NCBI GenBank assembly: GCA_017514235.1 | Contig: JAFWKK010000039.1 | Location: forward strand, 1-64,000 | Direction: 5' to 3' | DNA: 64,000 nt | Source of the DNA: Kiritimatiellia bacterium | GTDB taxonomy: Bacteria > Verrucomicrobiota > Kiritimatiellia > RFP12 > UBA1067 | In this document: positions 4,651 through 48,200 of the stretch, in pieces | Layout of the letters: each line of letters opens with the position of its first letter | Position numbering within the stretch: the first letter of the stretch is position 1 | Position numbers and translations under genes: made by a program | The notes under the pieces: generated by a model | Told to the model about the DNA's origin: nothing | The model's input: only the letters and a program-made list of their open reading frames with translations | The model's database searches: none

Positions 4651-5366
4651 CACTCCCCCAGCGCCTCCAGTACGCGCAATGCCTGGACCGTCTCCTTGAC
4701 GTCGTGTACGCGCACGACTGACGCGCCGTGCCGCGCACACCACATGGCTATGGCCAGGTTCCCGCCAAGGTTCTTGCCGGTAACCTTCTCGCCAGTCAGC
4801 TTCTTCACGATGCGCTTGCGACTCGCGCCTACCAGCACCCGCCCCCGCTTCGCCAGCTCGGGTACCGACCACAGCAGTGCAATATCCTCCTCCCGCGACG
4901 TTCCAAAGCCGATCATCGGGTCGATATAAATGGGGACAGTCCCCAATTCGGCGGGGACTGTCCCCAGAGACTGTGCAGGAATAACGAGCTCTGCACCACT
5001 TTTTGCGCAAATACGCAGCATTTCGGAAATCGGCTCGGCATAGACGCAGTTGACGATCTTGGCTCCAGCCTCAACAGCGCGAGCCGCCGTCTCCGGGTGA
5101 TAGGTGTCGACGGAAATGGGGACAGTCCCCCCCTTGCATGATAGGGACAGTCCCCGAAGGACTGGCTCCACGCGGTGCCATTCCTCCTCCCAGCCGACCG
5201 GTTCGGCGCCCGGACGGGTCGATTCCCCGCCGATGTCGATGATGTCCGCGCCGTCAGCAATCAGGTTCCGTGCCCGGCGGATCGCCTCCTCGGGACTGAA
5301 GTAGCGTCCGCCGTCCGAGAACGAGTCGGGCGTGACGTTTACGATTCCCATTACCTTGCAGTTCAT
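4650..5366 (-). CDS. folP: Dihydropteroate synthase carrying in-frame palindrome insertions (238 aa)
   Basis: The enzyme condenses 6-hydroxymethyl-dihydropterin diphosphate with p-aminobenzoate in folate synthesis. Signatures in order: 'GIVNVTPDSFSDGG' (residue 6 on), 'GGESTRPGA', 'ISVDTYHPETAARAVEAGA', 'DPMIGFG', 'LVGASRKRI' and 'RVHDVKE'. It is shorter than usual (about 270-280 aa). The segment between 'ELVIP' and 'IYIDPMIGFG', which normally holds an MH-x-G-x-P helix of about 30-40 residues, is replaced by two Gly-Thr-Val-Pro heptapeptides encoded by palindromic DNA. A second pair of palindromes is translated just before 'ISVDT'. The start at 5366 overlaps the rnhB stop (ATGA). Activity may be retained, but the insert sites make this uncertain. 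Confidence 0.88.
   Translation of the reverse strand: MNCKVMGIVNVTPDSFSDGGRYFSPEEAIRRARNLIADGADIIDIGGESTRPGAEPVGWEEEWHRVEPVLRGLSLSCKGGTVPISVDTYHPETAARAVEAGAKIVNCVYAEPISEMLRICAKSGAELVIPAQSLGTVPAELGTVPIYIDPMIGFGTSREEDIALLWSVPELAKRGRVLVGASRKRIVKKLTGEKVTGKNLGGNLAIAMWCARHGASVVRVHDVKETVQALRVLEALGE
4931..4965. repeat. Pair of GGGGACAGTCCCC palindromes inside folP
   Basis: Palindromes lie at 4932-4944 (15 bp if flanking T/A are counted) and 4953-4965, centres exactly 21 bp apart. Read in the folP frame they encode SLGTVPAE then LGTVPI. Each is a perfect 6-bp arm dyad around one central base. Confidence 0.9.
5117..5155. repeat. Second palindrome pair inside folP
   Basis: Copies lie at 5118-5130 (perfect) and 5143-5155 (one arm mismatch at 5143), centres 25 bp apart. 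In the folP frame they read GGTVP and RGLSLS, so the same element is translated in two different frames. Confidence 0.85.
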
Positions 5367-6004
5367 ATGTCCAACTCCATCTGCATGACCGGCCCGAAGC
5401 TGCGGCGGTGCTCGGGGCATGGGCCCAATCGGGCGAGTGCCGCCAGATGCTCCTTGGTCGGATATCCCTTGTGCCTGGCAAAACCATAGCCCGGATAAAG
5501 CCGCTCGAGCCGCAGGCAATCGGCATCCCTTGCGGTCTTCGCAAGGATTGACGCCGCGGCTATTAGAAGCGACTTGGCGTCGCCCTTGACCAGGTTCTTC
5601 GCATGCGGCAACGTCGTCACGGGGAGTCCGTCCACAAGACAGTGGAGCCGCTCCACGTCCGTGCCGAGCGCGGCGGCCACCGCATCTGTGGCGCGGCGCA
5701 TGGCGAGATGCGTAGCGTGCAATATGTTGAGCTTGTCGATCTCTTCAGGGCTCGCGCTTGCCACGGCCCATGTGCAACCGGGCGTTGCCTTGATTACCTC
5801 GGCGATTGCGGTGCGGCGCTTCTCGCTCAGCTTCTTGGAATCGTTGACAGAGCTCCATTCTCCAGAAAGAAGTTCCACAGCGCGCAAGAGCGGAACCGAC
5901 ACCGCTCCCGCATAGACGCCACCTGCGAGCGGACCCCTGCCAGCCTCGTCTATGCCCGCCACGGGATCGCCGAGCGCCATCTCGAACTCTAGCGAAACCG
6001 CCAT
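5363..6004 (-). CDS. rnhB: Ribonuclease HII
   Basis: RNase HII cleaves the RNA strand of RNA-DNA hybrids and single ribonucleotides in DNA. At 213 aa it has the normal length. Motifs: 'GIDEAGRGPLAG' near residue 17 (metal-binding D and E plus the GRG substrate loop), 'NDSKKLSEKRR' near 53-63, 'LVDG' with a further conserved Asp, and 'SILAKTARD' near 152-160. The C-terminal 'YPGYGFARHKGYPTKEH' is the usual family ending. It begins 4 nt after the upstream lipoprotein gene stop and ends in a 4-nt overlap with folP, within the nadC-coaX operon. Confidence 0.95.
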   Translation of the reverse strand: MAVSLEFEMALGDPVAGIDEAGRGPLAGGVYAGAVSVPLLRAVELLSGEWSSVNDSKKLSEKRRTAIAEVIKATPGCTWAVASASPEEIDKLNILHATHLAMRRATDAVAAALGTDVERLHCLVDGLPVTTLPHAKNLVKGDAKSLLIAAASILAKTARDADCLRLERLYPGYGFARHKGYPTKEHLAALARLGPCPEHRRSFGPVMQMELDI

Positions 6005-6008
6005 TCCG

Positions 6009-6536
6009 TCATCGGGCCGGGTTGTCGAGCTCGCGCACGACGTCCAGCAGCTGCTCCGCGAGATCGGGGTCCTCGTCGAAGATGTTGACGTTGTCGGAAT
6101 ACGTGTTGTTGCAGATGTTCGCCGACACCGCGATGAAGCGGTCCTGCGACTTGCGTTTAGACGACTTGCCGGTCTTCTCCCTGTCGAGAAGGCCGAAGTT
6201 CACCAGGTTCTGAAAGATGTCATGAGCGTCCTTCGGGTCGATGGTGAAGCGGTGGGTGCGTATCTTCGACCAATCCTCCTCCTTGTAGCGCTTTGCGAAA
6301 TCGTTCGACACGAGTTCGCTCGTGCCCTTCTTCACGATAACCTGCCCGTTGCCGTATATCTCAACGCCTATGCGGCGTATCGGAGTGCGGCTCATGTTGT
6401 AGTAGTGTATGATCACCCAGTTCAGGGAGCTCTCGCGCACTGTTATGTAGGGGTCCACCCAGAACGGTCCGCACCCGGCGATCGGGGCGAGGAGCGCAAC
6501 GGAGACGGCGAAAACCTTCAGAATCCTTGGGAGCAT
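6009..6536 (-). CDS. Predicted lipoprotein of unknown function (175 aa)
   Basis: The start at 6536 gives a lipoprotein signal peptide (MLPRILKVFAVSVALL) with lipobox IAGC at about residues 20-23. Upstream in-frame starts lie deep in coaX and would bury the signal. The mature part has 'PYITVRESSLNWVIIHYYN', consistent with a small beta-rich domain, and a charged C-terminal helix 'DEDPDLAEQLLDVVRELDN'. I do not recognise the family. It overlaps the end of coaX by 19 nt and precedes rnhB by 4 nt, so it is part of the housekeeping operon. Location is probably the inner or outer membrane, facing the periplasm. Confidence 0.7.
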   Translation of the reverse strand: MLPRILKVFAVSVALLAPIAGCGPFWVDPYITVRESSLNWVIIHYYNMSRTPIRRIGVEIYGNGQVIVKKGTSELVSNDFAKRYKEEDWSKIRTHRFTIDPKDAHDIFQNLVNFGLLDREKTGKSSKRKSQDRFIAVSANICNNTYSDNVNIFDEDPDLAEQLLDVVRELDNPAR

Positions 6537-7267
6537 ATTAGTCCTGTTCCGTAGAGGGTCAGCGTAGGGTCTATTGCGAACGGGAGGTCGAGTCCGGAGA
6601 GGACCCACCTTGCGAAGCCGCCTGTCGCGACGAGCCGAAAGTCGCAGTCGAAGCCGCGTTTCAGCTCCGCGACGATCTCCCTGACCATGCCACGGTATCC
6701 GATGCGGGCACCGATGCGCATGGCCTGCACGGTCGAGCGTCCGATCCTCGGAAGACGTCCGCCGGCGAGCGACATGCGCGGCAAACGGGCCGTGCGCTCG
6801 AAGAGATAGTCGCGCATCAGCGGGAAGCCAGGCGCGATCACGCCGCCGCGCCAGACCCGGTCAGCGGTGACGACGGCCGCAGTTAGGGCCGTGCCGAAGT
6901 CCATTATCAGCACGGGCGATCCGTAGCGGGAGACGGCCCCGGCCGCATCGGCCAGGCGGTCTGCGCCGATGGTCTCCGGCTTCGGATAGTCGAGGCGGAC
7001 CCCGACGGCAGGAAGGTCGCGGTGCGACACGGCGCGGAGACGCAGGCCGGCCTTTCGCGCGAAGGCGCGAAAGGCCGCGTCCTTGCCAGGCACGACGCTC
7101 GCGTAAGCCAGCCCGGCTACGCCGTGCGCGCCCCTCGCCGCGCGCGATGCCGCAGCGAAGGCGGCCTCTGCGGGACCGTCGCAGTGCGCCACACGGCTGA
7201 CGCGGCCGTCGGACCAAAGCCCGACGGCCGTCGAAGTGTTGCCAACGTCTATGACGACGAGCTTCAC
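6518..7267 (-). CDS. coaX: Type III pantothenate kinase
   Basis: CoaX phosphorylates pantothenate in the first step of coenzyme A synthesis. It is an ASKHA-fold kinase of 249 aa, the usual size. Visible motifs: 'VVIDVGNTSTAVGL' (phosphate 1) at residue 4, 'GADRLADAAGA' (substrate loop) near 100, 'LIMDFGTALTAAVV' (phosphate 2) near 120, and 'GGVIAPGFPLM' near 140. The start is GTG at 7267, overlapping the stop of the DUF1080 lipoprotein gene (GTGA), which implies translational coupling. Confidence 0.93.
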   Translation of the reverse strand: MKLVVIDVGNTSTAVGLWSDGRVSRVAHCDGPAEAAFAAASRAARGAHGVAGLAYASVVPGKDAAFRAFARKAGLRLRAVSHRDLPAVGVRLDYPKPETIGADRLADAAGAVSRYGSPVLIMDFGTALTAAVVTADRVWRGGVIAPGFPLMRDYLFERTARLPRMSLAGGRLPRIGRSTVQAMRIGARIGYRGMVREIVAELKRGFDCDFRLVATGGFARWVLSGLDLPFAIDPTLTLYGTGLICSQGF

Positions 7268-8760
7268 AGCTCCTTTATGAATATGTTACGCCACTCCGTA
7301 GGGTCGCCGTGGCACTGCAGCTCGATCTGCTCGGACGGGAAAATCTTCTGCGAGCGGTCCCAGTAGTTCTCGAGCGTTACGTTGTCCACCACGAGCTCGC
7401 CGTTCAGCCAGACCGAGACCTTCTCGCCCTTCATTATGACATGGAAGCGGTTCCAGTCGCCGACCTGCCTGTCGGCAATCTTAAGGGCCTTTGAGACGTT
7501 GCCCGTCTTGGCATACCTGTTGTTGTAGAGACCGCCCGAGCCGATGTGCCACTGGTTGTGCGCGTCCCATATCTGGACCTGCGGCGAACCGCGCAGGTAG
7601 AGGCCTGAGTCGCCGGTGACGGACATTATGCGCCAGTCGGCCCACATCTCGAAGTCGGCGTAGTCGCGCTTCGTAGCAAGCGAATAGCCTCCGTTGAAGC
7701 CGTCGAAAAAGAGGTTGCCGTTGCGCACCGACCAGTGCGCGTCACGCTGAGCGTCGGCCTTCGCCTGCATCTCAGCGCGCTTCTCGGGCGTCGCCTTCTG
7801 CCGCACGAGCGGATTGTCGAACTTCTCCTCGGTCGTCACGCCCTTCCACATCGCCTTGATCTGACCGGGGCAGCCGTCGAAGTACGTCTCGAACCCGCAC
7901 GGAGCCTTCATCTTCTGGCACGGGCAGACCTCGCCCATCTTCGCGCTGTCGGGCAGCTCCTTGATGCGAATGTTCTTCCACTTGACGTTATGGCCGTGGC
8001 CCAGCCAGCCGATGCGCCCGCGCATGTTGTGGATGCCGGGGTGCGCCCTCCCGTCGGGCGTGTCGGTGCCGTCGCCCTTGAACTTCGACAGGTCGGCCTT
8101 CGTGATGAGGTAGCCGTTCAGGTACACCTCGATCTCGCTGCCGATGACCTTGACCTCCTCGAAGTTCCACATGCCGGGCTTGCGGACGTAGCTGCCGCCT
8201 CCGGTGAAGTTCTGGTCCTTGCCCCAGATCTGCTTGCCCGCATTGTCGCGCAGGCTCGGCACGACGCCGTAGACCGAGCCCGTGTACTGGTAGGGCTTCA
8301 GCTTGTCCTTCTTCGCCGCCGCGTCATAGTAGCTGGGGCCGCCGTCGTCAAGCAGCTGAAGCTCGCACATGGCGTAATACGCGGCGTCCTTCGACGGGTC
8401 GGCGATGCGTATGCCGAGGCCGTTGTTGCCGTCCTGCGGCATCATGAACTCGAACCGCAGTATGAAGTTGCCGTATTCCTTCGCCGTCACAAGGTCGCCG
8501 CGCTGGCCCGCCGGCAGCTTCCTGTCGGGGAAGCACTGCAGCACGCCGGGCTCCGCAGGATCGACGCCGTACATGGCCGTCGCGCCCTCCCAGCCCTCGA
8601 GGTCTACGCCGTTGAACAGCGACACGAACCCCTCGTTCACCGCCGCCGGATAACGGCAGCACTTCTTATCCGCCCCGGACTTTGCCGGTTCGGTCTTCGT
8701 GCAGCAGCATCCCGCCACCGCGATTCCTGCGACAATCGCCGCAACCGTTCTCATCTTCAT
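7264..8760 (-). CDS. Lipoprotein with two DUF1080 (3-keto-disaccharide hydrolase-type) domains (498 aa)
   Basis: The start at 8760 has a GGAGGACAAC ribosome binding site and begins a lipoprotein signal (MKMRTVAAIVAGI, lipobox VAGC). Two concanavalin-like DUF1080 modules follow. The first is at about residues 45-225 ('EGFVSLFNGVDLEGWEG' to 'VKWKNIRIKEL'), the second at about 310-498 ('GLYLRGSPQVQIWD', 'VSVWLNGELVVDNV', ending 'EWRNIFIKEL'). The linker is Cys- and Lys-rich. The family is abundant in Verrucomicrobiota and Planctomycetota and some members act on 3-keto-glycosides; the activity here is inferred. Its place between nadC and coaX is unusual for a glycan-acting lipoprotein. It overlaps both neighbours by 4 nt. 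Confidence 0.85.
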   Translation of the reverse strand: MKMRTVAAIVAGIAVAGCCCTKTEPAKSGADKKCCRYPAAVNEGFVSLFNGVDLEGWEGATAMYGVDPAEPGVLQCFPDRKLPAGQRGDLVTAKEYGNFILRFEFMMPQDGNNGLGIRIADPSKDAAYYAMCELQLLDDGGPSYYDAAAKKDKLKPYQYTGSVYGVVPSLRDNAGKQIWGKDQNFTGGGSYVRKPGMWNFEEVKVIGSEIEVYLNGYLITKADLSKFKGDGTDTPDGRAHPGIHNMRGRIGWLGHGHNVKWKNIRIKELPDSAKMGEVCPCQKMKAPCGFETYFDGCPGQIKAMWKGVTTEEKFDNPLVRQKATPEKRAEMQAKADAQRDAHWSVRNGNLFFDGFNGGYSLATKRDYADFEMWADWRIMSVTGDSGLYLRGSPQVQIWDAHNQWHIGSGGLYNNRYAKTGNVSKALKIADRQVGDWNRFHVIMKGEKVSVWLNGELVVDNVTLENYWDRSQKIFPSEQIELQCHGDPTEWRNIFIKEL

Positions 8761-9635
8761 GTTGTCCTCCATTCTAGTGAAAGGTCTACGGAACCCGCCG
8801 AATGCGTAAGGCACCCGAGGGAAATTGCCGTCACTCCGGTCGCCGCGACGGCGCGGGCGCGGTCGAGCGTGATTCCGCCGGACGCCTCGGTCTTCGAGAC
8901 GCCGCGGCACAGCTTTACGCATTTCCTCATGTCCGCGCAACTCATGTTGTCGAGCATTATCCACTCCGGCTTCGCACGAAGTGCGCTCGCACACTCGCGG
9001 ATGCTCTCCACTTCCACTTCGACCGCTAGCTTAGGGAACGCCCGCCGCGCGGCAAGGACCGCCTGGTCTAGCGCGTCGGGATCGCCGCCGCGCCAGAGCC
9101 GCCGGTGGTTGTCCTTCATGAGGATGCGGTCGAACATTCCGAAGCGGTGGTTGGTGCCGCCGCCGCACGTGACGGCGTACTTCTCGAAGACGCGCAGCCC
9201 CGGCGTCGTCTTGCGCGTGTCAAGGACGAGCGTGCCGTATCTGGCGGTCGCATCGACGAACCGGCGCGTCAGCGTGGCCGTCGCGCACATTCTCTGCATG
9301 AAGTTGAGGGCGGTGCGCTCTGCCGCAAGGATCGACCGAGCCTTGCCACGGAACGTCAGGATCGGTTCAAGCGGCTTCACTCGGGATCCGTCGGGCTTCA
9401 GTATGCGGACCTTGACCTTCGGATCCACCGCCCGCATGACGGCCGCGGCGACAGTCGCACCGGCGACAATGCAACCTTCGCCCTTCGCGTATATCTCACC
9501 CTCGGCTACCGCCTCGGGGGCGACAAGGGCTTCGCTCGTCGCATCGCACCAGGGATCGCCCAGGTCCTCGTCAAGCGCCAGGCGCACTGCGGCCCTGGCG
9601 GACTTGAGGCGCATCACATCCCTCGGCGCGCCCAT
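8757..9635 (-). CDS. nadC: Nicotinate-nucleotide diphosphorylase (carboxylating), quinolinate phosphoribosyltransferase
   Basis: NadC converts quinolinate and PRPP to nicotinate mononucleotide in de novo NAD synthesis. At 292 aa it matches the family. Motifs: 'ALDEDLGDPWCDATSEAL' near residue 20, 'AERTALNFMQRMCATAT' near 105-121, 'LDTRKTTPGLRVFEKYAV' near 138-155, 'GGGTNHRFGMFDRILMKDNH' near 158-177, and 'EVEVESIREC' with 'IMLDNMS'. It begins one base after the small membrane protein stop and overlaps the DUF1080 gene by 4 nt. Confidence 0.95.
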   Translation of the reverse strand: MGAPRDVMRLKSARAAVRLALDEDLGDPWCDATSEALVAPEAVAEGEIYAKGEGCIVAGATVAAAVMRAVDPKVKVRILKPDGSRVKPLEPILTFRGKARSILAAERTALNFMQRMCATATLTRRFVDATARYGTLVLDTRKTTPGLRVFEKYAVTCGGGTNHRFGMFDRILMKDNHRRLWRGGDPDALDQAVLAARRAFPKLAVEVEVESIRECASALRAKPEWIMLDNMSCADMRKCVKLCRGVSKTEASGGITLDRARAVAATGVTAISLGCLTHSAGSVDLSLEWRTT

Positions 9636-9636
9636 C

Positions 9637-9864
9637 TCAGGCGCCCTTGAGGAATTCCCAGTGCTGATAGATGACGAACGTCAGTACGCCGACGACCGCG
9701 AGCGCAGCAAGGCCCGCCACCATCGCGACCGTAGTCGCAACGCCGCCGGACGAGCGCCCGGCGTTAGGATCTATGTCGAGCCTGAAACGTTCGGGCACGC
9801 CCGCCGCCCCGGCCGCAGAAGCATCCGCCGCATCCGATTCATTGATTGGCTTCTTGATAGTCAT
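9637..9864 (-). CDS. Small single-pass membrane protein (75 aa)
   Basis: The N-terminal 40 residues are polar and Ala-rich ('NESDAADASAAGAAG'). One transmembrane helix follows at about residues 43-68 ('GVATTVAMVAGLAALAVVGV'), with a short tail. I do not recognise it. It is the first gene of the eight-gene operon ending at 4180. An extended -10 box ends 7 nt before its ATG with no Shine-Dalgarno, so its mRNA is probably leaderless. Confidence 0.6.
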   Translation of the reverse strand: MTIKKPINESDAADASAAGAAGVPERFRLDIDPNAGRSSGGVATTVAMVAGLAALAVVGVLTFVIYQHWEFLKGA

Positions 9865-9871
9865 GCCACAG

Positions 9872-9880
9872 ATTATACCA
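9872..9880 (-). promoter_or_regulatory. Extended -10 promoter, leaderless start of the nadC-coaX-folP operon
   Basis: On the minus strand this reads TGGTATAAT with 7 nt between the hexamer and the ATG at 9864. No ribosome binding site fits in the gap. Confidence 0.6.
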
Positions 9881-9897
9881 CGATTAGCTGCCGGAAA

Positions 9898-10512
9898 TCA
9901 AGGCCGCGGTTCCGCCGAACCGGCGAATTCGCTCATCGTGGCCTCTCCGGCATGGCTGATGTGGCGCGGACGAAGGAGCTGCCATGCCGTCATCAGCAGG
10001 ATCCGCAGGTCAAGCCAGGGCGAGCGGTTGTCTACGTATTCGACGTCAAGACGGAACTTCTCCTCCCATTCGAGCGCGTTTCGCCCGTTCACCTGCGCCC
10101 AGCCGGTGATTCCGGGACGCACCTCGTGGCGACGGCCCTGCTCCGCAGTGTAGCGCGGCAGGTAGCGGACCGGCAGCGGACGAGGCCCTACGAGCGACAT
10201 GTCGCCCTTCAGGACGTTCCACAGCTCCGGCAACTCGTCAAGCGACGAGGCGCGCAGGAAACGTCCGAACGGGGTGAGACGCTCGGCGTCCGTGCCTGGG
10301 CCGACGCGCATCGTCCGAAACTTGACGAGCCGGAACTGACGCCCGCCCAGCCCCGCACGCAGGTCATGAAAAAGGACAGGCCTGCCCAGCGCAACCCGCA
10401 CCGCAAGCGCCACCGCCGCCGCAAGCGGCATCCAGACAGGAGCCGCTGCAAGAACCAACAGCACGTCCGCGATCCGTTTCACGTTCACCGCCGCATCACG
10501 ATTCCGACGCAC
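9898..10512 (-). CDS. Undecaprenyl-phosphate sugar-1-phosphate transferase (bacterial sugar transferase family, 204 aa)
   Basis: A short-form polyprenyl-phosphate phosphoglycosyltransferase that would start a cell-surface polysaccharide repeat unit on the inner membrane. Residues of about 15-40 form the membrane anchor. The cytoplasmic catalytic part shows 'FRLVKFRTM', 'SLDELPELWNVLKGDMSLVG' followed by PRP, and 'RPGITGWAQVNGRN', all hallmark motifs. The start is GTG at 10512 with an AAAGGGG ribosome binding site. It lies 9 nt after the VWA gene, so they are probably co-transcribed. Sugar specificity cannot be read from the sequence. Confidence 0.9.
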   Translation of the reverse strand: MRRNRDAAVNVKRIADVLLVLAAAPVWMPLAAAVALAVRVALGRPVLFHDLRAGLGGRQFRLVKFRTMRVGPGTDAERLTPFGRFLRASSLDELPELWNVLKGDMSLVGPRPLPVRYLPRYTAEQGRRHEVRPGITGWAQVNGRNALEWEEKFRLDVEYVDNRSPWLDLRILLMTAWQLLRPRHISHAGEATMSEFAGSAEPRP

Positions 10513-10521
10513 AGGCCCCTT

Positions 10522-11568
10522 TCAGGCCATCCGCCGCGCGGCGGACATGGATAGGGAAACTGCCAGAAGGATGAGCACGGCGCCGGCGAGGAGAAACGGC
10601 ACGAAGTGCTCGCGCCAGCGGTTGAACACGTCCGCATCAAGCCTGGTCGTCTCCAGCTGATCGATTTCGTCGAGGGCCTTCTCCAGCGAGTCGCGGTCGT
10701 TCACGGGGAAGTACGTTCCGCCGGTACGCTTCGCGATGGACTTCAGCTGCTTCTCGTCAAACGTCATGTCGACGTACTGTATCGTCTCGCGGCCGAAGAA
10801 GTCGCGCCCGAAGATGGGCGTCCGCCTGGAACGGGTGCCGACGCCAATCGCGTAGACCTTCACCCCCATCTTCGCGGCGGCGGCGGCGGCCTCGTCGGGT
10901 TCCACCGCGCCGGTGTTGGACACGCCGTCCGACAGCAGTATCACGATCTTGGACTTAGGCTTGGCGTCCTTGAGGCGGGCGAGCGCGGTGGCGAGGCCGT
11001 CGCCCACCGCCGTCATCTGCTCGTCTGCGGCGATCGCGCGGCCCTGCGCGTCAAGGGCGATGGAGGGAATCTCCACGCCCTTCAGCACGTTGAGCAGCGC
11101 CTCGTGGTCGGCGGTGAGCGGACTGCGCGTCGCGGCATAGCCGCCGAACGTGACAAGCCCGATCAGGTCGTCCGGGCGCTTCGACACGAATTCGGCGAAA
11201 AGCTTCTTCACTACCGCAAGGCGCGTCGTGTTGCGCGAGAACCGCTCCCCGCGAGGCGTCAAGTCGAGCGCGTCCATCGAGCCGGAGACGTCCACGGTCA
11301 TGGCTATCGCGATCGCATCCACCGACTTCTTCTCGCGGGCGAGCGACGTGCGCGGACGTGCGGCTGCGAGGACTAGCAGCGCAAGGCCGGCGAGGAGCAG
11401 GTACGGCGTCATCGCCGCGACGCGCGCGCGCCAGCCCGCCGCCCCCGCCGGAATCCGCCCGAGGGCCGAGAACCTTATCCCCGCCTTGCGTCCGCGACGC
11501 AGCAGCCGCCACGCCGCCACCGCAAACGGCACGAAAAGGACCAGCATCCATGGATTGGCAAAGCTCAT
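10522..11568 (-). CDS. BatA-like von Willebrand factor A domain membrane protein (348 aa)
   Basis: Two N-terminal transmembrane helices (about residues 3-22 and 54-72) precede a VWA domain at about 80-290 with the MIDAS motif 'MTVDVSGSMD', a conserved Thr region and 'VILLSDG'. A third helix lies at about 318-340. This layout is that of Bacteroides aerotolerance BatA proteins, usually encoded with MoxR ATPase and BatB; neither is present here. The start at 11568 was chosen because 'MSFANPWML' is the typical family beginning and an extended -10 box lies 7 nt upstream. Function is probably membrane-linked protein assembly or stress resistance (inference). Confidence 0.82.
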   Translation of the reverse strand: MSFANPWMLVLFVPFAVAAWRLLRRGRKAGIRFSALGRIPAGAAGWRARVAAMTPYLLLAGLALLVLAAARPRTSLAREKKSVDAIAIAMTVDVSGSMDALDLTPRGERFSRNTTRLAVVKKLFAEFVSKRPDDLIGLVTFGGYAATRSPLTADHEALLNVLKGVEIPSIALDAQGRAIAADEQMTAVGDGLATALARLKDAKPKSKIVILLSDGVSNTGAVEPDEAAAAAAKMGVKVYAIGVGTRSRRTPIFGRDFFGRETIQYVDMTFDEKQLKSIAKRTGGTYFPVNDRDSLEKALDEIDQLETTRLDADVFNRWREHFVPFLLAGAVLILLAVSLSMSAARRMA

Positions 11569-11575
11569 GGCGCAT

Positions 11576-11584
11576 ATTATACCA
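11576..11584 (-). promoter_or_regulatory. Extended -10 promoter for the BatA-like gene, leaderless
   Basis: TGGTATAAT on the minus strand, 7 nt before the ATG at 11568, with no Shine-Dalgarno between. Confidence 0.6.
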
Positions 11585-11602
11585 CAAGAACGCCGCGCTC
11601 CG

Positions 11603-12514
11603 TCAGGAAACGGGCGCACTACCGCCGCGCCGGCTTCCGGACGGCACGAACTGCCTGACTGCGTCTATGGCAAAATTGGCGTAACGCTTCAGCTGCGGCA
11701 CCAGGCGCAACTCCGCGTCAGGAACGAGAAACAGGCACTGGCGCTCCAGAAGCTTGCCGCCTTCCGTCCTCAACTTGTGCCCCAGCCAAACGTTGAAGAA
11801 GCGTTCCGCCAGAAACGCCGGCGAGCGCACGAGCGAATACGTCGCATCGTCCGGCCAGACGGAAACGCTCTCCAACTTTTGCAAGATGTCGAACTGCCAC
11901 GCGAGATACTCCATGGCCCAGTCGCGGCGCATTACGAACTGAAGCCACAGGTAGGCGTGGCGCCCGTTCAGCCACGCCTCCATGTCCGGGGCGTAGTCCG
12001 CGTAATCCGAACGCACGATCTTCATCAGGGCGTCAAGGTCTCTCATGGAATGCCCGCCCATGGCATACTGCTCATAACAGCTCCCAACGTTTCTGCCGAA
12101 TCGCGAAGGCGCGGGAACTACGACGTCGAACCCGCCTGCGTCGATGCACGGCATGACGTTCGCCTCCGAATATCTCTCGGCGAAACCCTGTGCGAAACTA
12201 CCGAAGGAGACGTGCTTGAGACGAAGATTCCGCGGCGCACGGGCAAAATCGAGAAAGCGTCGGTAGTGGCACATGCCTACATAGTCCAGTTCACGATGCT
12301 CAGGAAGATGGTTCTTCCAAAGCCAATAATGGGCAGTCAGCTCCGCCCAGACGCGGTTCTTGGCCGAGATGTTGTCGCCGACATCGTCCCGCAGCGCTCC
12401 CTCCCTGGGACCGCTCACCGCGCAACCGGCCTGAATCGGTTCCACGCAGTCAGACCTGTACAGCGGGACCGGATTCCGCCCGTAGTAGACGGCAAATATC
12501 TTCAGCCTGCTCAC
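11603..12514 (-). CDS. DUF4422 capsular polysaccharide glycosyltransferase-like protein (303 aa)
   Basis: The start is GTG at 12514, overlapping the stop of the upstream gene (GTGA). This fits 'KIFAVYYGRNPVPLY' as the N-terminal strand of the domain. Characteristic family features: 'NRVWAELTAHYWLWKN', 'LDYVGMCHYRRFLDF', a 'SCYEQYAMGGHSMRDL' segment, and a C-terminal 'FFNVWLGHKLR'. Members act in capsule or LPS glycan synthesis. It is the last gene of the bamA operon; its upstream neighbour also looks like a glycan-assembly protein, so the pair probably modifies a surface glycan. Confidence 0.82.
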   Translation of the reverse strand: MSRLKIFAVYYGRNPVPLYRSDCVEPIQAGCAVSGPREGALRDDVGDNISAKNRVWAELTAHYWLWKNHLPEHRELDYVGMCHYRRFLDFARAPRNLRLKHVSFGSFAQGFAERYSEANVMPCIDAGGFDVVVPAPSRFGRNVGSCYEQYAMGGHSMRDLDALMKIVRSDYADYAPDMEAWLNGRHAYLWLQFVMRRDWAMEYLAWQFDILQKLESVSVWPDDATYSLVRSPAFLAERFFNVWLGHKLRTEGGKLLERQCLFLVPDAELRLVPQLKRYANFAIDAVRQFVPSGSRRGGSAPVS

Positions 12515-13362: not shown

Positions 13363-13371
13363 CGACCGGCT

Positions 13372-36876: not shown

Positions 36877-36877
36877 T

Positions 36878-38761: not shown

Positions 38762-38781
38762 AGGGCGCAAAGGAAACTGAC

Positions 38782-40843: not shown

Positions 40844-40865
40844 TGCCCGAGGCTCCTTGCGACGG

Positions 40866-41204: not shown

Positions 41205-42388
41205 GTCGCGCCTCCCCGGCGCCCGAAGAACCTGTCCGCGACAAGCGCGATGGCTCCGTCCCCAGTCACGTTGGCCGCAGGACCGTACCCGTCGAGCGCC
41301 ATGTAGAACGCCATCATGACCGATATGTGCTCCGGAGAGAGTCCAAGGACCGTGTCAAGGAAGCCTACGGACGCCATCAGCACCCCGCACATCACGCCGG
41401 GCGCGGCAACCGCCGCGATCGCAAACAGGAACGTAAAGTGCGCGACCTGCGCAAACGTGACGTCGAGGTCGAATATGAGCACGACCGCCAGCGTCGAGGT
41501 TATCATCTTGATCGCGCTGCCGACCATGTGGACGTTCGCGCACAGCGGCACGACGAAGTCGCGGATGTCTTCTGATATCCCGTTCTTCTCGCAGCATTCG
41601 AGCGTAACCGGTATCACAGCTGACGACGATGCGATTGAAAGCCCCGTCAAGTACGCCGGCGCCATGTTCCACAGGCACCTAAACGGATTCTTCCCGGCGA
41701 CGGACCCCGCAACTGCGTAGAGCGCCATGAGAAATACAATCGTCAGCGCCCAGCCCGTGCCGATAACTTCCGCCATCGTCACGGCCATCGCGCCGATCTT
41801 GCCGGACGCCGTCATCTCGCAAATCATCGTCATGATGTAAACCGGCAGGCCGGGGATAATTACCCGCTGGATCGTCAGCGTGACGATCCGCGCGAACTCG
41901 TCTGTGGCGGCCTTTACGCGCACCGCCCCCGTGACAACGATGCCGATGCCGACCATGAACGAAAGCGCAAGCGCCGTCAGGACGTCGCACACCGGCGGAA
42001 TCTTGACGTCTATGTACGGCAGCACCTTGGCCGCCTCCCCTGCCGCAGCCACCGCTCCCTTGGCGACGTAGAGCGGCAGGAGCCGTCCGGCTGCGAAGTA
42101 GGCGAACAGCGACGCGGCGCACGTCGACAGGTACGAGAATACCATCACGAAGAGCAGCAGCTTGCCCGCGCCCCTGCCGGCGTTCGCTATAGCCGGGGTC
42201 ACCAGTCCGAGTATGAGAAGCGGCACGATGAACTTCAGCACCTGCGCGAACAGGACGTTGAAAGTCTTAAGAACGCGTACGCCGACTTCGCCGACCGCGC
42301 CCGTATGCATGGCCGCGAAGCCGAGCGCCACGCCTACCGCGATGGCAATCAGAATCCGCCAGAAAAGGCCAACCTTGATCTTCTTCAT
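41201..42388 (-). CDS. Dicarboxylate/amino acid:cation symporter (395 aa)
   Basis: A DAACS-family transporter with about eight hydrophobic segments and the re-entrant Ser-rich signature 'SIASSSAVIPVTLECC' near 275, plus 'PLCANVHMVGSAIKM' near 305 in place of the usual N-MDG motif. It probably imports C4-dicarboxylate or acidic amino acids with Na+ or H+. The start at 42388 follows an extended -10 box by 9 nt with no ribosome binding site. First gene of a symporter-folB-miaB operon. Confidence 0.88.
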   Translation of the reverse strand: MKKIKVGLFWRILIAIAVGVALGFAAMHTGAVGEVGVRVLKTFNVLFAQVLKFIVPLLILGLVTPAIANAGRGAGKLLLFVMVFSYLSTCAASLFAYFAAGRLLPLYVAKGAVAAAGEAAKVLPYIDVKIPPVCDVLTALALSFMVGIGIVVTGAVRVKAATDEFARIVTLTIQRVIIPGLPVYIMTMICEMTASGKIGAMAVTMAEVIGTGWALTIVFLMALYAVAGSVAGKNPFRCLWNMAPAYLTGLSIASSSAVIPVTLECCEKNGISEDIRDFVVPLCANVHMVGSAIKMITSTLAVVLIFDLDVTFAQVAHFTFLFAIAAVAAPGVMCGVLMASVGFLDTVLGLSPEHISVMMAFYMALDGYGPAANVTGDGAIALVADRFFGRRGGAT

Positions 42389-42397
42389 GATTTGTGT

Positions 42398-42406
42398 ATG
42401 ATACCA
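42398..42406 (-). promoter_or_regulatory. Extended -10 promoter of the symporter-folB-miaB operon
   Basis: TGGTATCAT on the minus strand, 9 nt before the ATG at 42388. Confidence 0.5.
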
Positions 42407-42595
42407 AACCCTGCGCCACGCTTCAACCGCCGGCGCGACACAGGGCAGAGCGTTCGTCTTCCCTGCCGTCTTCAATGCGGCGGTCGCCGTGCCTCGAAAA
42501 AATGGCACGACGGAGGCATGTCCGTGACCAGAAGATCGCAGCTGTATGTCATACTACCCGCGTCTTCGACGACGAAGGCAGAAAGGAACGACAAA

Positions 42596-43306
42596 ATGAA
42601 CGAACAAGGAAATGACAACGCATGCGGGCAGGCCGCGGCATCGGCGACAGGTCGCCAGGCGGGGCAGTACCGGCCGCAGCTTGCAATCTATCATCCGAAC
42701 GGCAAAGGCACCGGCGGCGCAGCTAAGATCGATCTTCACCCGGCGCACGACGCCTCGGCAGGCTGCCTGATGCTAAAGCTCGCCAGCCAGTGCGCCGTTG
42801 GCGGGCAGTCCGGCGGAGTAGCGCAGTTCGCCCGGTTCGACTGGGAAAACGCGATCTCCGTCAAGCTCGACTTCAACGACATCTGCGCGATCCTCCAGGT
42901 GTTTGGAGGGGAATGCGAGTCGCTCTGCGATGGGCACGGGCTCTACCACCGCACGGCGCGCGCATCGACAAAGATCGCAATGCGCCACATCATCGACCCG
43001 CACCCTGGGTATTCGCTCGACCTCTACCGCACCTCGTCCGACGGAAGCGAATGCCGAGCGCACCTGATGCTTTCGCAGGCGGAGGCAGCGGGGCTCCGCG
43101 CGGCTATCATGGGATCCATGTCAACGATATGCTTCGGCATTCCGATGCTGATAGAGCACGACACCTCGGCCTACCAGGCGCTCAGCAGATCATGGCGCGC
43201 TGCGCGGCACAATGGGATCCCGGCGGAACGGCAGCCAAAGCCGAGCGTCACGCCCCGCCGTCAGCGGCTGTGTCATCCTACCTGTCCAGCCGATAATATC
43301 GGATGA
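42596..43306 (+). CDS. Hypothetical protein with a conserved-looking core (236 aa)
   Basis: The start at 42596 has an AAAGGA ribosome binding site. The N-terminal 35 residues are polar and low in complexity ('NDNACGQAAASATGRQAG'). The core, about residues 36-185, looks folded: 'YRPQLAIYHPNGKGTGGAAK', 'FARFDWENAISVKLDFNDIC', 'GECESLCDGHGLYHRTARAS', 'HPGYSLDLYRTSSDG'. The C-terminus is basic and Pro-rich. No signal peptide or transmembrane helix. I do not recognise the family. It converges with the pseudouridine synthase gene and overlaps it by 34 nt. Confidence 0.7.
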   Translation: MNEQGNDNACGQAAASATGRQAGQYRPQLAIYHPNGKGTGGAAKIDLHPAHDASAGCLMLKLASQCAVGGQSGGVAQFARFDWENAISVKLDFNDICAILQVFGGECESLCDGHGLYHRTARASTKIAMRHIIDPHPGYSLDLYRTSSDGSECRAHLMLSQAEAAGLRAAIMGSMSTICFGIPMLIEHDTSAYQALSRSWRAARHNGIPAERQPKPSVTPRRQRLCHPTCPADNIG

Positions 43307-43950
43307 ACGACCCGCTGCGGCGCCGAAACCTCCACCCACCGCCCGGTGTGCGGATGGCGGAAGCGCAGGCGCACGGATTGGAGGCACAGGCACGGGGCAC
43401 GGCGCGCGCCGTACTTAACGTCGCCCACCACCGGATGCCCCGCCTCGCTGAAATGTACCCTTATCTGGTTCTTGCGCCCGGACTTCAGCGACACCTCCAC
43501 AAGCGTCTCCCCGTTCCCGACGGCGAGCCTTCGCCATTCTGTGCGGGCGAGCTTTCCGAGCCGCGGATCCCTCACGCTGCGCACCTTCATAGTCTTCGCG
43601 TCATCACGCAGATACGACTCGAACACGCCTTCCGCGTCCGCAAGCTCGCCCTCGACGAGCGCCAGGTACGTCTTCTCGGTGAGCCGGTTCCAGTCGGCAC
43701 GGAACCACTCCGCCACCTCCTCCGTCTTGGCGAACATCATCACTCCGCTCGTCTCGCGGTCAAGGCGGTGAACCAGCCAGACGTGCAGGCGGCTCTTGCG
43801 CTGCCCCTTGCGCACGTAGTCGTTCAGCCACGCCTCCGCCGTGTTCTCCTCCTTCGCCCGCGTATGCGTTGCAAGAAGGCCTGCCGGCTTGTCGATTACA
43901 ACGACATCCCGGTCTTCGTACAGTATCGGAAACGGCAGTCGGTTCTTCAT
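43273..43950 (-). CDS. RluA-family pseudouridine synthase (225 aa)
   Basis: The catalytic 'VHRLDRETSGVMMFAKT' lies near residue 60. 'PFPILYEDRDVVVIDKPAGLLATHT' structure opens the protein, and 'SGRKNQIRVHFSEAGHPVVG' with 'LCLQSVRLRFRHP' closes it. There is no N-terminal S4 domain, so it is a short-form RluA-type enzyme acting on rRNA or tRNA; the target cannot be assigned. Confidence 0.9.
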   Translation of the reverse strand: MKNRLPFPILYEDRDVVVIDKPAGLLATHTRAKEENTAEAWLNDYVRKGQRKSRLHVWLVHRLDRETSGVMMFAKTEEVAEWFRADWNRLTEKTYLALVEGELADAEGVFESYLRDDAKTMKVRSVRDPRLGKLARTEWRRLAVGNGETLVEVSLKSGRKNQIRVHFSEAGHPVVGDVKYGARRAPCLCLQSVRLRFRHPHTGRWVEVSAPQRVVHPILSAGQVG

Positions 43951-43963
43951 GGCTGTGCGAAAA

Positions 43964-43972
43964 AGTCTATCA
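43964..43972 (-). promoter_or_regulatory. Extended -10 promoter of the pseudouridine synthase gene
   Basis: TGATAGACT on the minus strand, 13 nt before the ATG at 43950. Confidence 0.4.
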
Positions 43973-44009
43973 AATCCCTCAGCCGAAAGTCAATCCGGCC
44001 CGCACCCCC

Positions 44010-44038
44010 TTGATTTCCGCACTGAAAAAGTGTATACT
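44010..44038 (+). promoter_or_regulatory. Promoter of the tRNA-Arg/fMet/Pro cluster
   Basis: -35 TTGATT at 44010-44015, 17-nt spacer, -10 TATACT at 44033-44038. tRNA-Arg begins 20 nt downstream of the -10. Confidence 0.6.
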
Positions 44039-44058
44039 ATTGCCTGTTTTCGGTTCTT

Positions 44059-44135
44059 GGGGCTGTAGCTCAACTGGATAGAGCATCAGACTACGAATCT
44101 GAGGGTTGTGGGTTCGACTCCCGCCAGCCCCGCCA
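44059..44135 (+). tRNA. tRNA-Arg (ACG)
   Basis: A 77-nt cloverleaf: acceptor GGGGCTG/CAGCCCC, T-loop TTCGACT, CCA encoded. The anticodon loop CTACGAA gives ACG, expected to become ICG by TadA. Confidence 0.95.
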
Positions 44136-44153
44136 GTTCCGGAAGCGCCAGAT

Positions 44154-44230
<77 letters not shown>

Positions 44231-44253
44231 AATGTGTCTGGCGCATTCGGTGT

Positions 44254-44330
44254 CGGACCGTAGCGCAGCCTGGTAGCGCGTTTGCTTGGGGTGCAAAAGG
44301 TCACGAGTTCAAATCTCGTCGGTCCGACCA
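44254..44330 (+). tRNA. tRNA-Pro (GGG)
   Basis: A 77-nt cloverleaf: acceptor CGGACCG/CGGTCCG, T-loop TTCAAAT, CCA encoded. The anticodon loop TTGGGGT gives GGG. Confidence 0.94.
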
Positions 44331-44345
44331 GTCAAAACTCCATTC

Positions 44346-45059
44346 TTACCGGCAAGACGCGGCGCGCATCGCGGTAAATTCGCTCTTGGCCTGCTCCATC
44401 TGGGAGCGGAAGGCGGGTATGGTTTGCAGGCGCGAATAGGCTATTGCGGCGGCAAGGCGCGTCATGTCCACGTCACTCTGCCAATGCGCCCCGGCGATTA
44501 CGCGGTTTTCGCCATATTGCATGGCGCGGACGAAGATTTCGTTGGCCTTCGCCGGGCTTATCTCCGCAAGCACCAGCGCAGCGACCATGCTTCTTAGCGT
44601 GTGGCCGGAGGGATAGCTGCCCTCGTCACGCCAGATGCCGTCCTCCTTTGGGCAGAGTGGCTCCTCGTTGAAATATGCAAAGGGTCGGCGCCTGTGGAAA
44701 AACGCCTTTGGCGCAACTCGCATTTGATCTGATGTCGAAAGGCTGTCCTCGATGACTTTCCAGATTTTGGGCGTGTTCGTGGGGGATATCTCCATCCCGA
44801 ACGGCTTGGAAAATGCATCCGCCACGGTGGCGAACGACCATACGGCATCATGTCTGGCAAGTGCGGCGCGCCCGGGATCCTTGCGCTGCTCCTTGCCCCA
44901 TTCGTAGCGTGCGACGTCTCGCGTGAAGTCCGCGCTGCCAGGCTCCGGCGGCGCAGGAAGGCATTTTATGAGGTCAGGCAGTTCCTCGACTCCGCAGTAC
45001 GGCTCGGCAAAAGCGGCCAGCGCCGCCGCAACCCAAAGCAACATCATGCGATTCTTCAC
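44346..45059 (-). CDS. Class A acid phosphatase (PAP2 family, 237 aa)
   Basis: The PAP2 signature is complete: K-x6-RP in 'KAFFHRRRPF', 'YPSGH' for motif 2, and R-x5-H in 'NRVIAGAHWQSDVD'. An N-terminal signal peptide (MMLLWVAAALAAFA) points to the periplasm. It removes phosphate from a broad set of monoesters. The start is GTG at 45059, with GGAGGAGG upstream; ATG 45077 is the alternative. The 'LPDLIKCLPAPPEPGSADFTRD' segment before the domain is usual for PhoN-type enzymes. Confidence 0.88.
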   Translation of the reverse strand: MKNRMMLLWVAAALAAFAEPYCGVEELPDLIKCLPAPPEPGSADFTRDVARYEWGKEQRKDPGRAALARHDAVWSFATVADAFSKPFGMEISPTNTPKIWKVIEDSLSTSDQMRVAPKAFFHRRRPFAYFNEEPLCPKEDGIWRDEGSYPSGHTLRSMVAALVLAEISPAKANEIFVRAMQYGENRVIAGAHWQSDVDMTRLAAAIAYSRLQTIPAFRSQMEQAKSEFTAMRAASCR

Positions 45060-45102
45060 GGACGTTTCCTCCTCCACATGTTATTTTCCTTTAATGTAAA
45101 GT

Positions 45103-45111
45103 ATTATATCA
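45103..45111 (-). promoter_or_regulatory. Extended -10 promoter of the acid phosphatase gene
   Basis: TGATATAAT on the minus strand, about 43 nt before the GTG at 45059, leaving room for its GGAGGAGG ribosome binding site. Confidence 0.5.
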
Positions 45112-45191
45112 TAACCCCAAGCAGCTTACGGGCAAGTTCCTTGCGCTTGGCGCCCGGCAAAAATTCCCACTACCCTTGGCAACTGCATACA

Positions 45192-45200
45192 TGGTATAAT
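45192..45200 (+). promoter_or_regulatory. Extended -10 promoter of mfd
   Basis: TGGTATAAT, 12 nt before the ATG at 45213, without a Shine-Dalgarno. Confidence 0.55.
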
Positions 45201-45212
45201 GCGCACTGTCCG

Positions 45213-48200
45213 ATGAAGGATGCGCGAGAGCTATTCGCCTCGTATTTCACACTCCCCGGGGCGAACCCCGGCGGAGAGCGTTCTTTTTGCACTCCGTCGC
45301 TGACCGGCGCGGCGGACGCATTTCTTGCCCTGACACTAACCAGAAACGGACTCGTGCTGGCCGTAACGCCCGGTCTGCCCGACGCCGACAGGCTCGCCGA
45401 CGACTTGCGCCTCATCGCACCGCCTGAAACGCGGATTCTCGACTTCCCGCCGCCTCTCGACGGCGACCGCACGGCGCTCGGCGCACGTCTCAAGACCATT
45501 GCCGCGCTGAAGGCATGGGGACTGTCCCCATACCCTTGCGTGGTAGTCGCCGCCTTCCCCGCCATCTCAACGCCCCTGTCCGCACGGTCCGTGCCTAGCA
45601 TAACGTTGGGGACAGTCCCCGCAGACACGGGGACAGGCCCCGCAAATGTGGGGACAGTCCCCGGCCGGTTCGGCGAAATCTGCAACAAACTTGCGGAATT
45701 CGGCTATACGCGCACTCCACTCGTCGAACAGGAAGGCGACTACTCAGTCCGTGGCGGAATTCTCGACGTATGGAGTCCAGGCGACGAGTTCCCGGTTCGC
45801 GCGGAGTTTTTCGGCGACGAACTGGAGAGCCTCCGCACGTTCAACGCCTCAACCCAACTGTCGATAAGCCGTATCGACAGTTGCGAACTTCTGCCGGCCG
45901 CCGAACGGAACGACGCGCAAGACTCGCAGGACAAGGCGACGCTCCCAGACCTGCTGCCTCCTGACAGCGTTCTCCTCGCCCTTGAACACAACTCCTACGA
46001 CCCTACGCCCTTCGCGTCCGCTCAAGCCTTCACAACCAGGATCTTCACAGGCGACCCGGCGCCGCGCGGAGTTCCGTCCCTCGCATTCCAGACATCGCCG
46101 CTGCCAGGGTTCGCGGAACTCGGCGCCGACGAAGCTCATCATCCGGAGCTATTCGACGACGCCCGCAGGCGGCTCGAACGGCACCTCGACGCCGCCCGTC
46201 AGCGCGGCGCAAGCGTCTTCACCATCGACGGCCTTTCCGGCGGATTCGAGATCGGCAGCCTTGTCGTCGTGACGAAGGCCGACCGCGTCTTCACTCGCCG
46301 AAGGACCCGCTCGTTGAAAGGCCGTTCCGCCCCGTCGACCGGCGCACGGCTCTCGGACTTCGACGACCTGGAGCCAGGCGAATACGTCGTGCACGTGGAC
46401 TACGGCGTCGGGCGCTACATCGGCTCGTCCGAGATATTCGTGGACGGCGTGCGCAGCGAGGTTTTCACAATCGAATACGCCGACGGCGGCAAGCTCCACG
46501 TCCCGGCCGCCCACGCGCACCTGCTCTCCCGCTACGTCGGAGTGCGCGGCGAAGAGGTCCACCTGCACAGGCTGGACGGACGGCGCTGGGAGAAGGACAA
46601 GCTGAACGCGCAGCGTGCCGTCGCGGACCTCGCCGCCGCGCTTCTGGAGACGCAGGCGAAGCGCGAGACCGTGCCGGGCTTCGCCTACGACGTCGCCTGC
46701 GACGGCATGGACGCATTCGAAGCCGCCTTCCCATACGAGGAAACTCCGGACCAGGCGGCGGCGATCGACGCCGTAAAGCGGGACATGGCCGCCGCCAAAC
46801 CGATGGACCGTCTGATCTGCGGCGACGCCGGCTACGGCAAGACGGAAGTAGCGATGCGCGCGGCCTTCATCGCCGCGATGAACGGCAAGCAGGTCGCCGT
46901 GCTTGCACCGACCACCGTGCTCGCCGAACAGCACTTCGAGACATTCACCTCCCGGTTCGACGGAACCCCAGTGCGCATAGAGTCCGTCTCGCGGTTCCAG
47001 TCCGGCGAGACGCACCGAGGAACCTTCAGCCGTCTGGCGACAGGCGTCTGCGACATCGTCATCGGAACGCACGCGATACTCTCCGACCGCATATGCTTCC
47101 ACGACCTCGGCCTCGTGATAATCGACGAGGAGCAGCGCTTCGGCGTGCGGCACAAGGAGTTCCTCAAGCGTCTGCGCGCGACGGCCGACGTGCTGACGCT
47201 CTCGGCGACCCCGATTCCGCGCACGCTCTACCTGTCCATGACCGGCGCGCGCGACCTGTCGCTGCTGCGTTCGCCGCCGAGCGAGCGCGTCGCCGTCGAC
47301 ACGCGGATCGTCCGGGACTCCGACGAGACGGTGCGAAGCGCCATCGAGTCGGAAATCCGCCGGGGCGGACAGGTCTACTTCCTCCACAACCGAGTCATGT
47401 CGATCGCGAAGGCCGAGCGACGCCTGCGCGCCCTTTGCCCGAAGGCCCGCATTACCGTCGCCCACGGACAGATGGACGCGCGAACGCTGGCAAAGAAGAT
47501 GCGCGACTTCGAGCAGGGCCGCTTCGACGTGCTGCTCTCCACAACCATCATAGAGTCAGGCATCGACATCCCGAGGGCGAACACGATTCTCGTAGACCAG
47601 GCGGACACGTTCGGCATGGCCGACCTATACCAGCTGCGCGGACGCGTCGGGCGTTCGTCGCGGCAAGGCTACGCGTACTTCCTGCTGCCGCCTTCCGGAT
47701 CGGTCGACGCCGACGCCCGCGAGCGACTTGCCGCCCTGAAACGCCACGGCGGACTCGGCGCGGGCTTCAACCTCGCCGTCCGCGACCTCGAGCTGCGCGG
47801 CGCCGGCAACCTGCTCGGCTCCCAGCAGTCGGGGCATATCGCTGCCGTGGGGTTCGGGCTTTACTGCCAGCTGCTGAAGCGCACCATCGCCAGGCTCAAG
47901 GGCGAGAAGGTGAAGACGATCGTGGACGTCAGGCTCAACCTCGACTTCACCAGTCCGCGCCTTCCCTACGGCTACATCGAGGAGGACGCCCAGCGCATCA
48001 GCCTCATGAAGCGTTTCGCGGAGGCGCAGGACATGCGTGTCGTGCGGGCGCTCGAGGACGAGATGCGCGACCGCTTCGGTCCGCTGCCGCCAGAGGCGAG
48101 GGAGTTCGTCAGCCTGGCCGGTCTGCGCGTGGCCTGCGCCGCCGCGGACATCGGCAACATCGACACCAAGGGAATGCGAGCAGTCTTCTATAAAGCCGGT

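What the first reader, a model, noticed from the sequence alone, without database searches (positions are those of the whole stretch)
4931..45662. A 13-bp palindrome family confined to two coding genes and phased at 21 bp
GGGGACAGTCCCC or a close variant occurs eight times in 64 kb: four in folP and four in mfd, none noticed outside coding sequence. Within the mfd cluster (three copies) and one folP pair, centres are exactly 21 bp apart, i.e. seven codons and two helical turns. They are translated as tandem heptapeptides around Gly-Thr-Val-Pro. This looks like a mobile palindromic element that can spread inside genes in frame, like Rickettsia palindromic elements or REP sequences moved by a RAYT transposase.
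Basis: partly seen in the sequence, partly recalled or inferred. Interest (0 to 1): 0.78.

Follow-up and report, generated by a model that had tools for sequence, protein, structure and literature searches.

The report
Transposase-linked palindrome that overwrites genes
A 13-letter DNA palindrome that flanks a single-strand-DNA transposase gene family has appeared again and again inside ordinary genes of gut bacteria, often by replacing a similar stretch letter for letter instead of inserting itself, which bears on the open question of how such repeats spread.

Summary
The eight palindromes and the 21-bp spacings are real (16 strand-hits, 1.5 expected). The genome, a genus-mate of Kiritimatiellae gut MAGs, holds 21 exact copies against 0 in the control; 13 lie in ORFs with Pfam domains, 8 have no such support, so they are not confined to genes.

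The motif flanks RAYT/TIRYT-type Y1 transposase genes here and in relatives, Halomonas, Thermoleophilia and Coriobacteriales. It fits the published TIRYT consensus GGGGWSAS. In 11 genomes the flank variant tracks the genome-wide variant (rho 0.72).

In the three genes compared, many copies are not insertions. FolP with two to six palindromes is about as long as FolP with none (median 139.5 vs 138 aa); natural peptides (VPISVDT, AWxLSPYP, VEGLSPE) are overwritten in place, recurrently. One sister-species difference is three substitutions within 13 nt and no indel. A second mode adds tandem units of about 21-24 bp.

The 21-bp unit is not codon-driven: it dominates in a Coriobacteriales MAG whose copies avoid coding DNA.

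A new variant of a known kind. The mechanism of in-place spread is inferred.

The parts
4932..4944 (-). palindrome in folP, read GTVP before IYIDPMIGFG
4953..4965 (-). palindrome in folP, read LGTVP; 21 bp from the previous copy
5118..5130 (-). palindrome in folP over the conserved VPISVDT peptide
5143..5155 (-). 12-of-13 palindrome in folP, other frame (RGLSL), over a natural L[KR]xL scaffold; exact in G004
4650..5366 (-). folP (dihydropteroate synthase); start placed at MNCKVMG by inference
45517..45529 (+). palindrome in mfd, read WGLSP, over a natural AWxLSPYP-like peptide; no alignment gap
45608..45620 (+). first palindrome of the mfd loop array, over a natural LGxxP scaffold
45629..45641 (+). 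second unit (GGGGACAGGCCCC), 21 bp on
45650..45662 (+). third unit, 21 bp on
45213..48311 (+). mfd (transcription-repair coupling factor); start placed at MKDARELF by inference

Best explanation
The palindromes are the cognate repeat family of RAYT/TIRYT-class Y1 (HUH) transposases. Shown by comparison: association with transposase genes, lineage-specific motif variants, repeated appearance (or loss) at the same gene sites, in-place replacement without length change, and tandem addition of roughly 21-24-bp units (13-bp palindrome plus about 8 or more bp of spacer). Inferred: the transposase nicks hairpin-forming single strands, and a short palindrome-bearing single strand then anneals to a partly matching site exposed in replication or repair and is copied in, so the site is overwritten (micro gene conversion). 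Further copies arise beside an existing one by tandem duplication. In genes only frame-preserving outcomes at permissive loops (mostly G-[TS]-V-P and G-L-S-P) survive, which enriches 21 and 24 bp.
For: Transposase link: one PF01797 gene in the genome, with palindrome variants at 1009(+), 1822(-), 2061(-) around and inside it. Palindromes (relaxed 13-mer) lie within 400 bp of 32 of 104 Y1 ORFs compared and only inside 3 more; 69 have none. The flanked label clusters on the tree (11 changes against 27.3 shuffled, 0 of 500 as low). Halomonas L361 has 3+3 GGGGACTGTCCCC and L374 4+4 GGGGTCWGACCCC. Flank variant against rest-of-genome variant: rho 0.72, p 0.012, 11 of 14 genomes usable. Overwriting: in 30 FolP orthologues the median anchor-to-anchor length is 138 aa with no palindrome (n 13) and 139.5 with two or more (n 16). 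Match counts to GGGGWCWGWCCCC at 7 sites are bimodal: of 183 cells 55 have 13 of 13, 9 have 12, 19 have 9-11, 100 have 8 or fewer. Empty orthologues average 6.4-8.2 of 13 at six of nine scored sites (background 4.2). Recurrence: the tree needs 2 to 8 changes at six of seven sites shared by two or more species. Third gene (QueH-BirA): G004 VGGLSPE vs G000 VEGLSPE, 3 substitutions in 13 nt, with 0 of 30 and 3 of 30 differences in the flanks. Tandem mode: G004 +45 bp in that gene, G066 +57 vs G009 and G074 +21 vs G030 in mfd, G026 +24 vs G010 in folP.
Against: No excision, cleavage or transposition was observed. This genome's only detected RAYT is flanked by GGGGACAGGCCCC, not by the exact majority motif. 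Some palindrome-rich genomes show no or weak RAYT (G026: 31 exact copies, none; G014: 55 copies, one below cut-off), though they are incomplete drafts; and G017 and G031 have Y1 genes but neither variant. FolP length and palindrome number correlate weakly (rho 0.41, p 0.025), so some copies do add length. At FolP column 96 empty orthologues average only 5.0 of 13, and at two sparsely scored sites 5.7 and 4.0. The tree counts changes, not gains; some recurrence could be loss, and some near matches may be decayed copies. NCBIfam REP_Tyr_transpos scores 74.2, below its cut-off 80.
Confidence: 0.55

Rival explanations
1. The palindrome is a selected DNA or RNA motif (a binding site of a host or domesticated protein) that accumulates by point mutation and selection at near-matching sites, as uptake sequences do. 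The transposase only uses the same motif.
For: In-place substitution at near matches with little or no length change; 12-of-13 states exist (9 of 183 site-by-species cells); the same motif is kept in several phyla.
Against: Only 0-66 exact copies per genome in the 36 genus members, and clustered; the variant differs by lineage together with the RAYT flanks; few intermediate states at columns 96, 127 and 152.
Confidence: 0.25
2. Classical insertion of a small mobile palindrome in frame (RPE- or REP-like), followed by compensating deletions that restore loop length.
For: Length-changing differences between relatives exist: +21, +24, +45, +57 bp; intragenic REPs and RPEs are published (PMC3733652, section 15 read).
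Against: No alignment gap within the site at columns 51, 127 and 217 in the 30 FolP compared; a sister-species difference made of substitutions without any gap.
Confidence: 0.12
3. Chance codon usage in GC-rich genes with natural G-x-V-P and G-L-S-P peptides.
For: The underlying peptides are natural.
Against: 21 exact copies against 0 in the reversed control, 419 against 0 in G083, window 16 hits against 1.5.
Confidence: 0.02
4. Quasi-palindrome correction by template switching turns imperfect inverted repeats into perfect ones.
For: A natural GTCCCC right arm (codons for V-P) could template the left arm (inference).
Against: It should give many different palindromes, whereas one arm pair recurs and tracks RAYT flanks. 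The GGGGTCTGTCCCC and GGGGACAGGCCCC variants are not perfect palindromes (4-bp stems).
Confidence: 0.06

Closest known systems
TIRYT elements and their terminal inverted repeats (Di Nocera et al. 2013, PMC3733652; probably subclass 2.1 of Quentin et al. 2018, PMC6006769)
   Same: Y1 transposase gene flanked by inverted repeats fitting GGGGWSAS (GGGGACAG fits); repeats in singles, pairs and clusters; HuH motif NHFH fits NH[YF]H
   Different: Here the repeat core is a 13-bp palindrome with up to 419 exact copies in one genome, seen in Kiritimatiellae, Coriobacteriales, Thermoleophilia and Halomonas, and in Kiritimatiellae it also lies inside genes by in-place replacement. In the passages and sections I read, intragenic cases were given for GTAG and CGTC repeats and not for TIRs.
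GTAG REPs moved by RAYT (REPtrons)
   Same: Inverted palindromes around a RAYT gene, dispersed in the genome, some inside repair genes (O. terrae uvrA)
   Different: No GTAG tag beside the palindrome; 13 bp instead of 20-40 bp; overwriting
Rickettsia palindromic elements (RPE; in PMC3733652 RPE-4 and RPE-6 are CGTC repeats)
   Same: Palindromes inside protein-coding genes
   Different: No CGTC tag, transposase-linked, nearly length-neutral in FolP; shorter than RPEs as I recall them
DNA uptake sequences and HIP1 (recalled, not looked up)
   Same: Short motif arising by substitution within genes in favoured frames
   Different: Tens of clustered copies instead of hundreds to thousands spread evenly; flanks a transposase

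Membership tests
TIRYT repeat family | Inverted repeats on both sides of a Y1 transposase gene | tested here: met
   L016, L314, L322, L326, L327, L345, L346, L361, L374 have copies on both sides; 69 of 104 Y1 ORFs compared have none
TIRYT repeat family | Repeat motif GGGGWSAS | tested here: met
   GGGGACAG and GGGGTCAG fit; consensus read in PMC3733652 section 16
TIRYT repeat family | C-terminal helix-turn-helix domain in the transposase | tested here: inconclusive
   Pfam scan of the L016 protein at E 0.01 gives only Y1_Tnp and a sub-cut-off DUF3320
RAYT (TnpA-REP) | HUH Y1 core with NHxH and Y..LNP motifs | tested here: met
   NHFH and YVYLNPVRAG in the L016 ORF; PF01797 37 bits, cut-off 23; but NCBIfam REP_Tyr_transpos 74.2, below cut-off 80
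GTAG REP | GTAG tetranucleotide at one end of the palindrome | tested here: not met
   No such conserved flank in 253 and 115 aligned copies; these sets also held some stretches from other taxa by mistake
GTAG REP | Mostly extragenic | tested here: inconclusive
   2 of 111 with coding signal in a Coriobacteriales MAG against 78% of random positions; 32 of 90 in this genus against 451 of 630 random positions; 13 of 21 in Pfam-supported ORFs in this genome
Rickettsia palindromic element | CGTC tag and insertion that lengthens the protein | tested here: not met
   no CGTC flank; FolP length nearly unchanged
Mobile element | Demonstrated excision or insertion by the enzyme | not testable with these tools
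   needs biochemistry

The most novel reading that the evidence does not exclude
TIRYT/RAYT repeats spread by homing onto near-matching sequence: a hairpin single strand released by the transposase overwrites a partly complementary stretch of about 13 nt without changing length. REP-like repeats would then disseminate by enzyme-linked micro gene conversion and not by insertion.
Probability: 0.33. Interest if true: 0.86.

Novelty: new variant of a known kind. Interest (0 to 1): 0.63.

Why it matters
How REP-like repeats spread is described as poorly understood (abstract and introduction passages of PMC8266576). Genes that carry the repeat in some species and a same-length natural peptide in others give a readable record of single events. 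That makes 'insertion or replacement' directly testable, and shows a repeat family rewriting parts of conserved genes such as folP, mfd and birA.

Tried and rejected
Helical phasing or codon periodicity as the cause of 21 bp: rejected. G083 (Coriobacteriales) shows 20 of 26 adjacent spacings under 80 at exactly 21 (first listed places only), and copies from that genome lie outside coding-like DNA (2 of 111; the 35 loci used had been picked by the 21-bp pattern, so single copies are under-represented). Genus-wide, 101 unique pairs from 14 of the 32 genomes with pairs (listing cut) peak at 21 (29), then 22 (14), 23 (8), 24 (15), 3 at 20 or less, 32 at 25-42; 60 of 101 are multiples of 3.

Function of a GTVP heptapeptide: rejected, since copies sit in other frames too (frames of 32 coding-like genus copies: 20 as G[ST]VP or GTDP, the rest others) and the peptides are mostly ancestral.

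Counts and what was left out: FolP used 30 of 55 genomes with a match (loci cap); Mfd 36 loci of 59 genomes; the birA domain 22 genomes of 58. The RAYT tree used 104 of 115 ORFs, dropping those under 150 aa; two of its rows (L368, L381) repeat G004 genes, because G098 turned out to be the same genome. One search used 11 of 14 genomes; G000, G006 and G027 had no AC or TC flank. The logo and the spacer lists mixed in loci L162-L200 from other taxa under 'genus'; I rely on them only for the absence of GTAG and CGTC. The Mfd peptide search at the end returned nothing; the 45517 statement rests. Coding scores use a model trained on this window only; at that cut-off 10 of 21 copies pass, whereas 13 of 21 have Pfam support. 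The 90.8% identity counts overlapping loci more than once.

Printed sequence: a full-text search for the 12- and 13-mers gave 5 papers; I saw only that listing, whose titles and abstracts concern other subjects. Papers: PMC3733652 (passages, sections 15 and 16), PMC6006769 (passages, sections 17 and 20), PMC8266576 and PMC2817692 (passages); others only as search listings.
Full report
Observation. One search confirms the eight palindromes and the 21-bp spacings. The genome (3.96 Mb, 82 contigs) holds 21 exact GGGGACWGTCCCC and none of the reversed control; a looser pattern gives 34 forward against 5 control. Thirteen exact copies lie in ORFs with Pfam domains: folP (3), mfd (3), QueH-BirA (3), MnmE, an LRR protein, a DUF4838 protein and a rhamnosidase-like protein. 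Of the other eight, two ORFs scanned gave no domain and six were not scanned because their coding scores were low.

Where it is. Of 58 relatives searched, 21 of 35 other species of the genus have exact copies (up to 66), and 2 of 23 genomes of other families have one each. Two genus members can be matched to named records by coordinates. G004 has the same five RAYT places and the same count of 56 as G098, the genome of L150 (Kiritimatiellae bacterium RGIG2398, goat ileum). G008:C178 has the same length and pair position as L102 (Kiritimatiellae bacterium Tb.RUG.298). Counts in the 17 genomes picked from that list run from 3 to 419, with control 0 in all 17.

Transposase link. The genome has one PF01797 gene, with GGGGACAGGCCCC-type copies upstream, inside its 3' part and just downstream, beside a CRISPR-like array. 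Of 85 Y1 loci read in the first set, 83 gave an ORF with my profile; with 30 more loci from other taxa 115 ORFs were collected and 104 compared. Two clades made mostly of genus rows carry the palindromes: one of 20 rows (14 flanked, 3 inside only, 3 none; two rows repeat G004) and one of 7 rows (all flanked). Most other Y1 rows from these genomes have none. The tree is a FastTree with long branches. In Halomonas halodenitrificans two RAYTs carry two different palindromes, each in tandem on both sides. Genomes dominated by GGGGTCTGTCCCC tend to have RAYTs flanked by that variant (rho 0.72, n 11). The repeat fits the TIRYT consensus GGGGWSAS of PMC3733652.

Inside genes it often overwrites. FolP carries the palindrome at several homologous places. 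The peptides under some of them are old: VPxSVDT and RPGAxPV are present in the DHPS chain 2dqw. Between two anchors FolP measures 138 aa (median, 132-150) in 13 orthologues without the palindrome and 139.5 (138-166) in 16 with two to six; G006 and G065 with five have 139. Number and length still correlate weakly (rho 0.41), because some copies come with added units. At column 127 YxEP[IV] becomes YEGTVP with no gap in five exact orthologues and in G001 at 12 of 13; G021, in the same clade on the tree, and G009 and G066 beside it keep the outgroup-like peptide, so two gains are likely, though branch supports there are only 82-94. In G078 an LLRSIPEL-like stretch is LLGSVPTM. In mfd, 45517 covers an AWxLSPYP-like peptide. 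A third gene, chosen for its three copies before its orthologues were seen, repeats this: G000 AVSRGLSPLLAGTVPMIKWPND and G024 AVARALSPFLQGLSPAIKWPND have equal length, and G004 has a new palindrome at VGGLSPE where G000 has VEGLSPE, by three substitutions in 13 nt with 30 of 30 and 27 of 30 identical flanking bases, at about 91% mean identity.

It also adds units. G004 has 45 bp more than G000 in QueH-BirA, with a 22-bp unit repeated exactly; G066 has 57 bp more than G009, and G074 21 bp more than G030, in mfd; G026 has 24 bp more than G010 in folP. The window's mfd array 45608-45662 fits a natural LGxxP scaffold plus two 21-bp units. As a single strand the 55-nt array folds at -20.2 kcal/mol (z -5.4) and single copies at -2.7 to -3.3.

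Why 21 bp. In G083, 20 of 26 close spacings are exactly 21, and palindromes of that genome avoid coding-like DNA (2 of 111, against 78% of random positions). In this genus 21-24 bp is usual, with an excess of multiples of three. A unit of 13 bp plus about 8 bp, filtered by reading frame inside genes, accounts for both (inference).

Coding share. In this genus palindromes are not enriched in genes: 32 of 90 in loci not chosen by gene have a coding signal, against 451 of 630 random positions. So genes are tolerated targets, not the preferred place.

Mechanism. Shown by comparison: association, variant tracking, repeated change at the same sites, length-neutral replacement and tandem units. Inferred: that the transposase drives it, and that a released single strand anneals to a near match and is copied in. 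The strongest rival is a selected motif that accumulates by point mutation. The scarcity of intermediate states at several sites and the variant tracking favour the first; the 9 cells at 12 of 13 leave room for the second.

Noticed in passing
L215, L226, L227, L229 (folP of G069, G030, G035, G074): The same FolP loops carry short repeats of TTTCAAC / CTCAACT type in place of the palindrome; a second repeat family may use these loops.
   Followed up: partly
L016 1-960 (G000:C63): A CRISPR-like array (repeat GTCGCCCGCCTCGCGCGGGCGTGAATTGAAAC) ends just upstream of the RAYT and its first palindrome.
   Followed up: no
L156 6454-7552 (Halomonas halodenitrificans): Two dense arrays, 22 palindromes in the locus, with spacers such as CAACCGCC and GGTGGTG; whether they are intergenic was not checked.
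   Followed up: partly
L374 (Halomonas), L375 (Thermoleophilia), L386 (Coriobacteriales): Further palindrome variants at RAYTs: GGGGTCWGACCCC and GGGGACSGTCCCC, suggesting a family GGGGWC-N-GWCCCC with enzyme-specific arms.
   Followed up: partly
L016 1821, L314 2148, L317 698, L326 1171, L336 1097: Several RAYT ORFs of this clade carry a palindrome within their own 3' coding part, about 190-200 nt before the stop, so the transposase gene itself bears an intragenic copy.
   Followed up: partly
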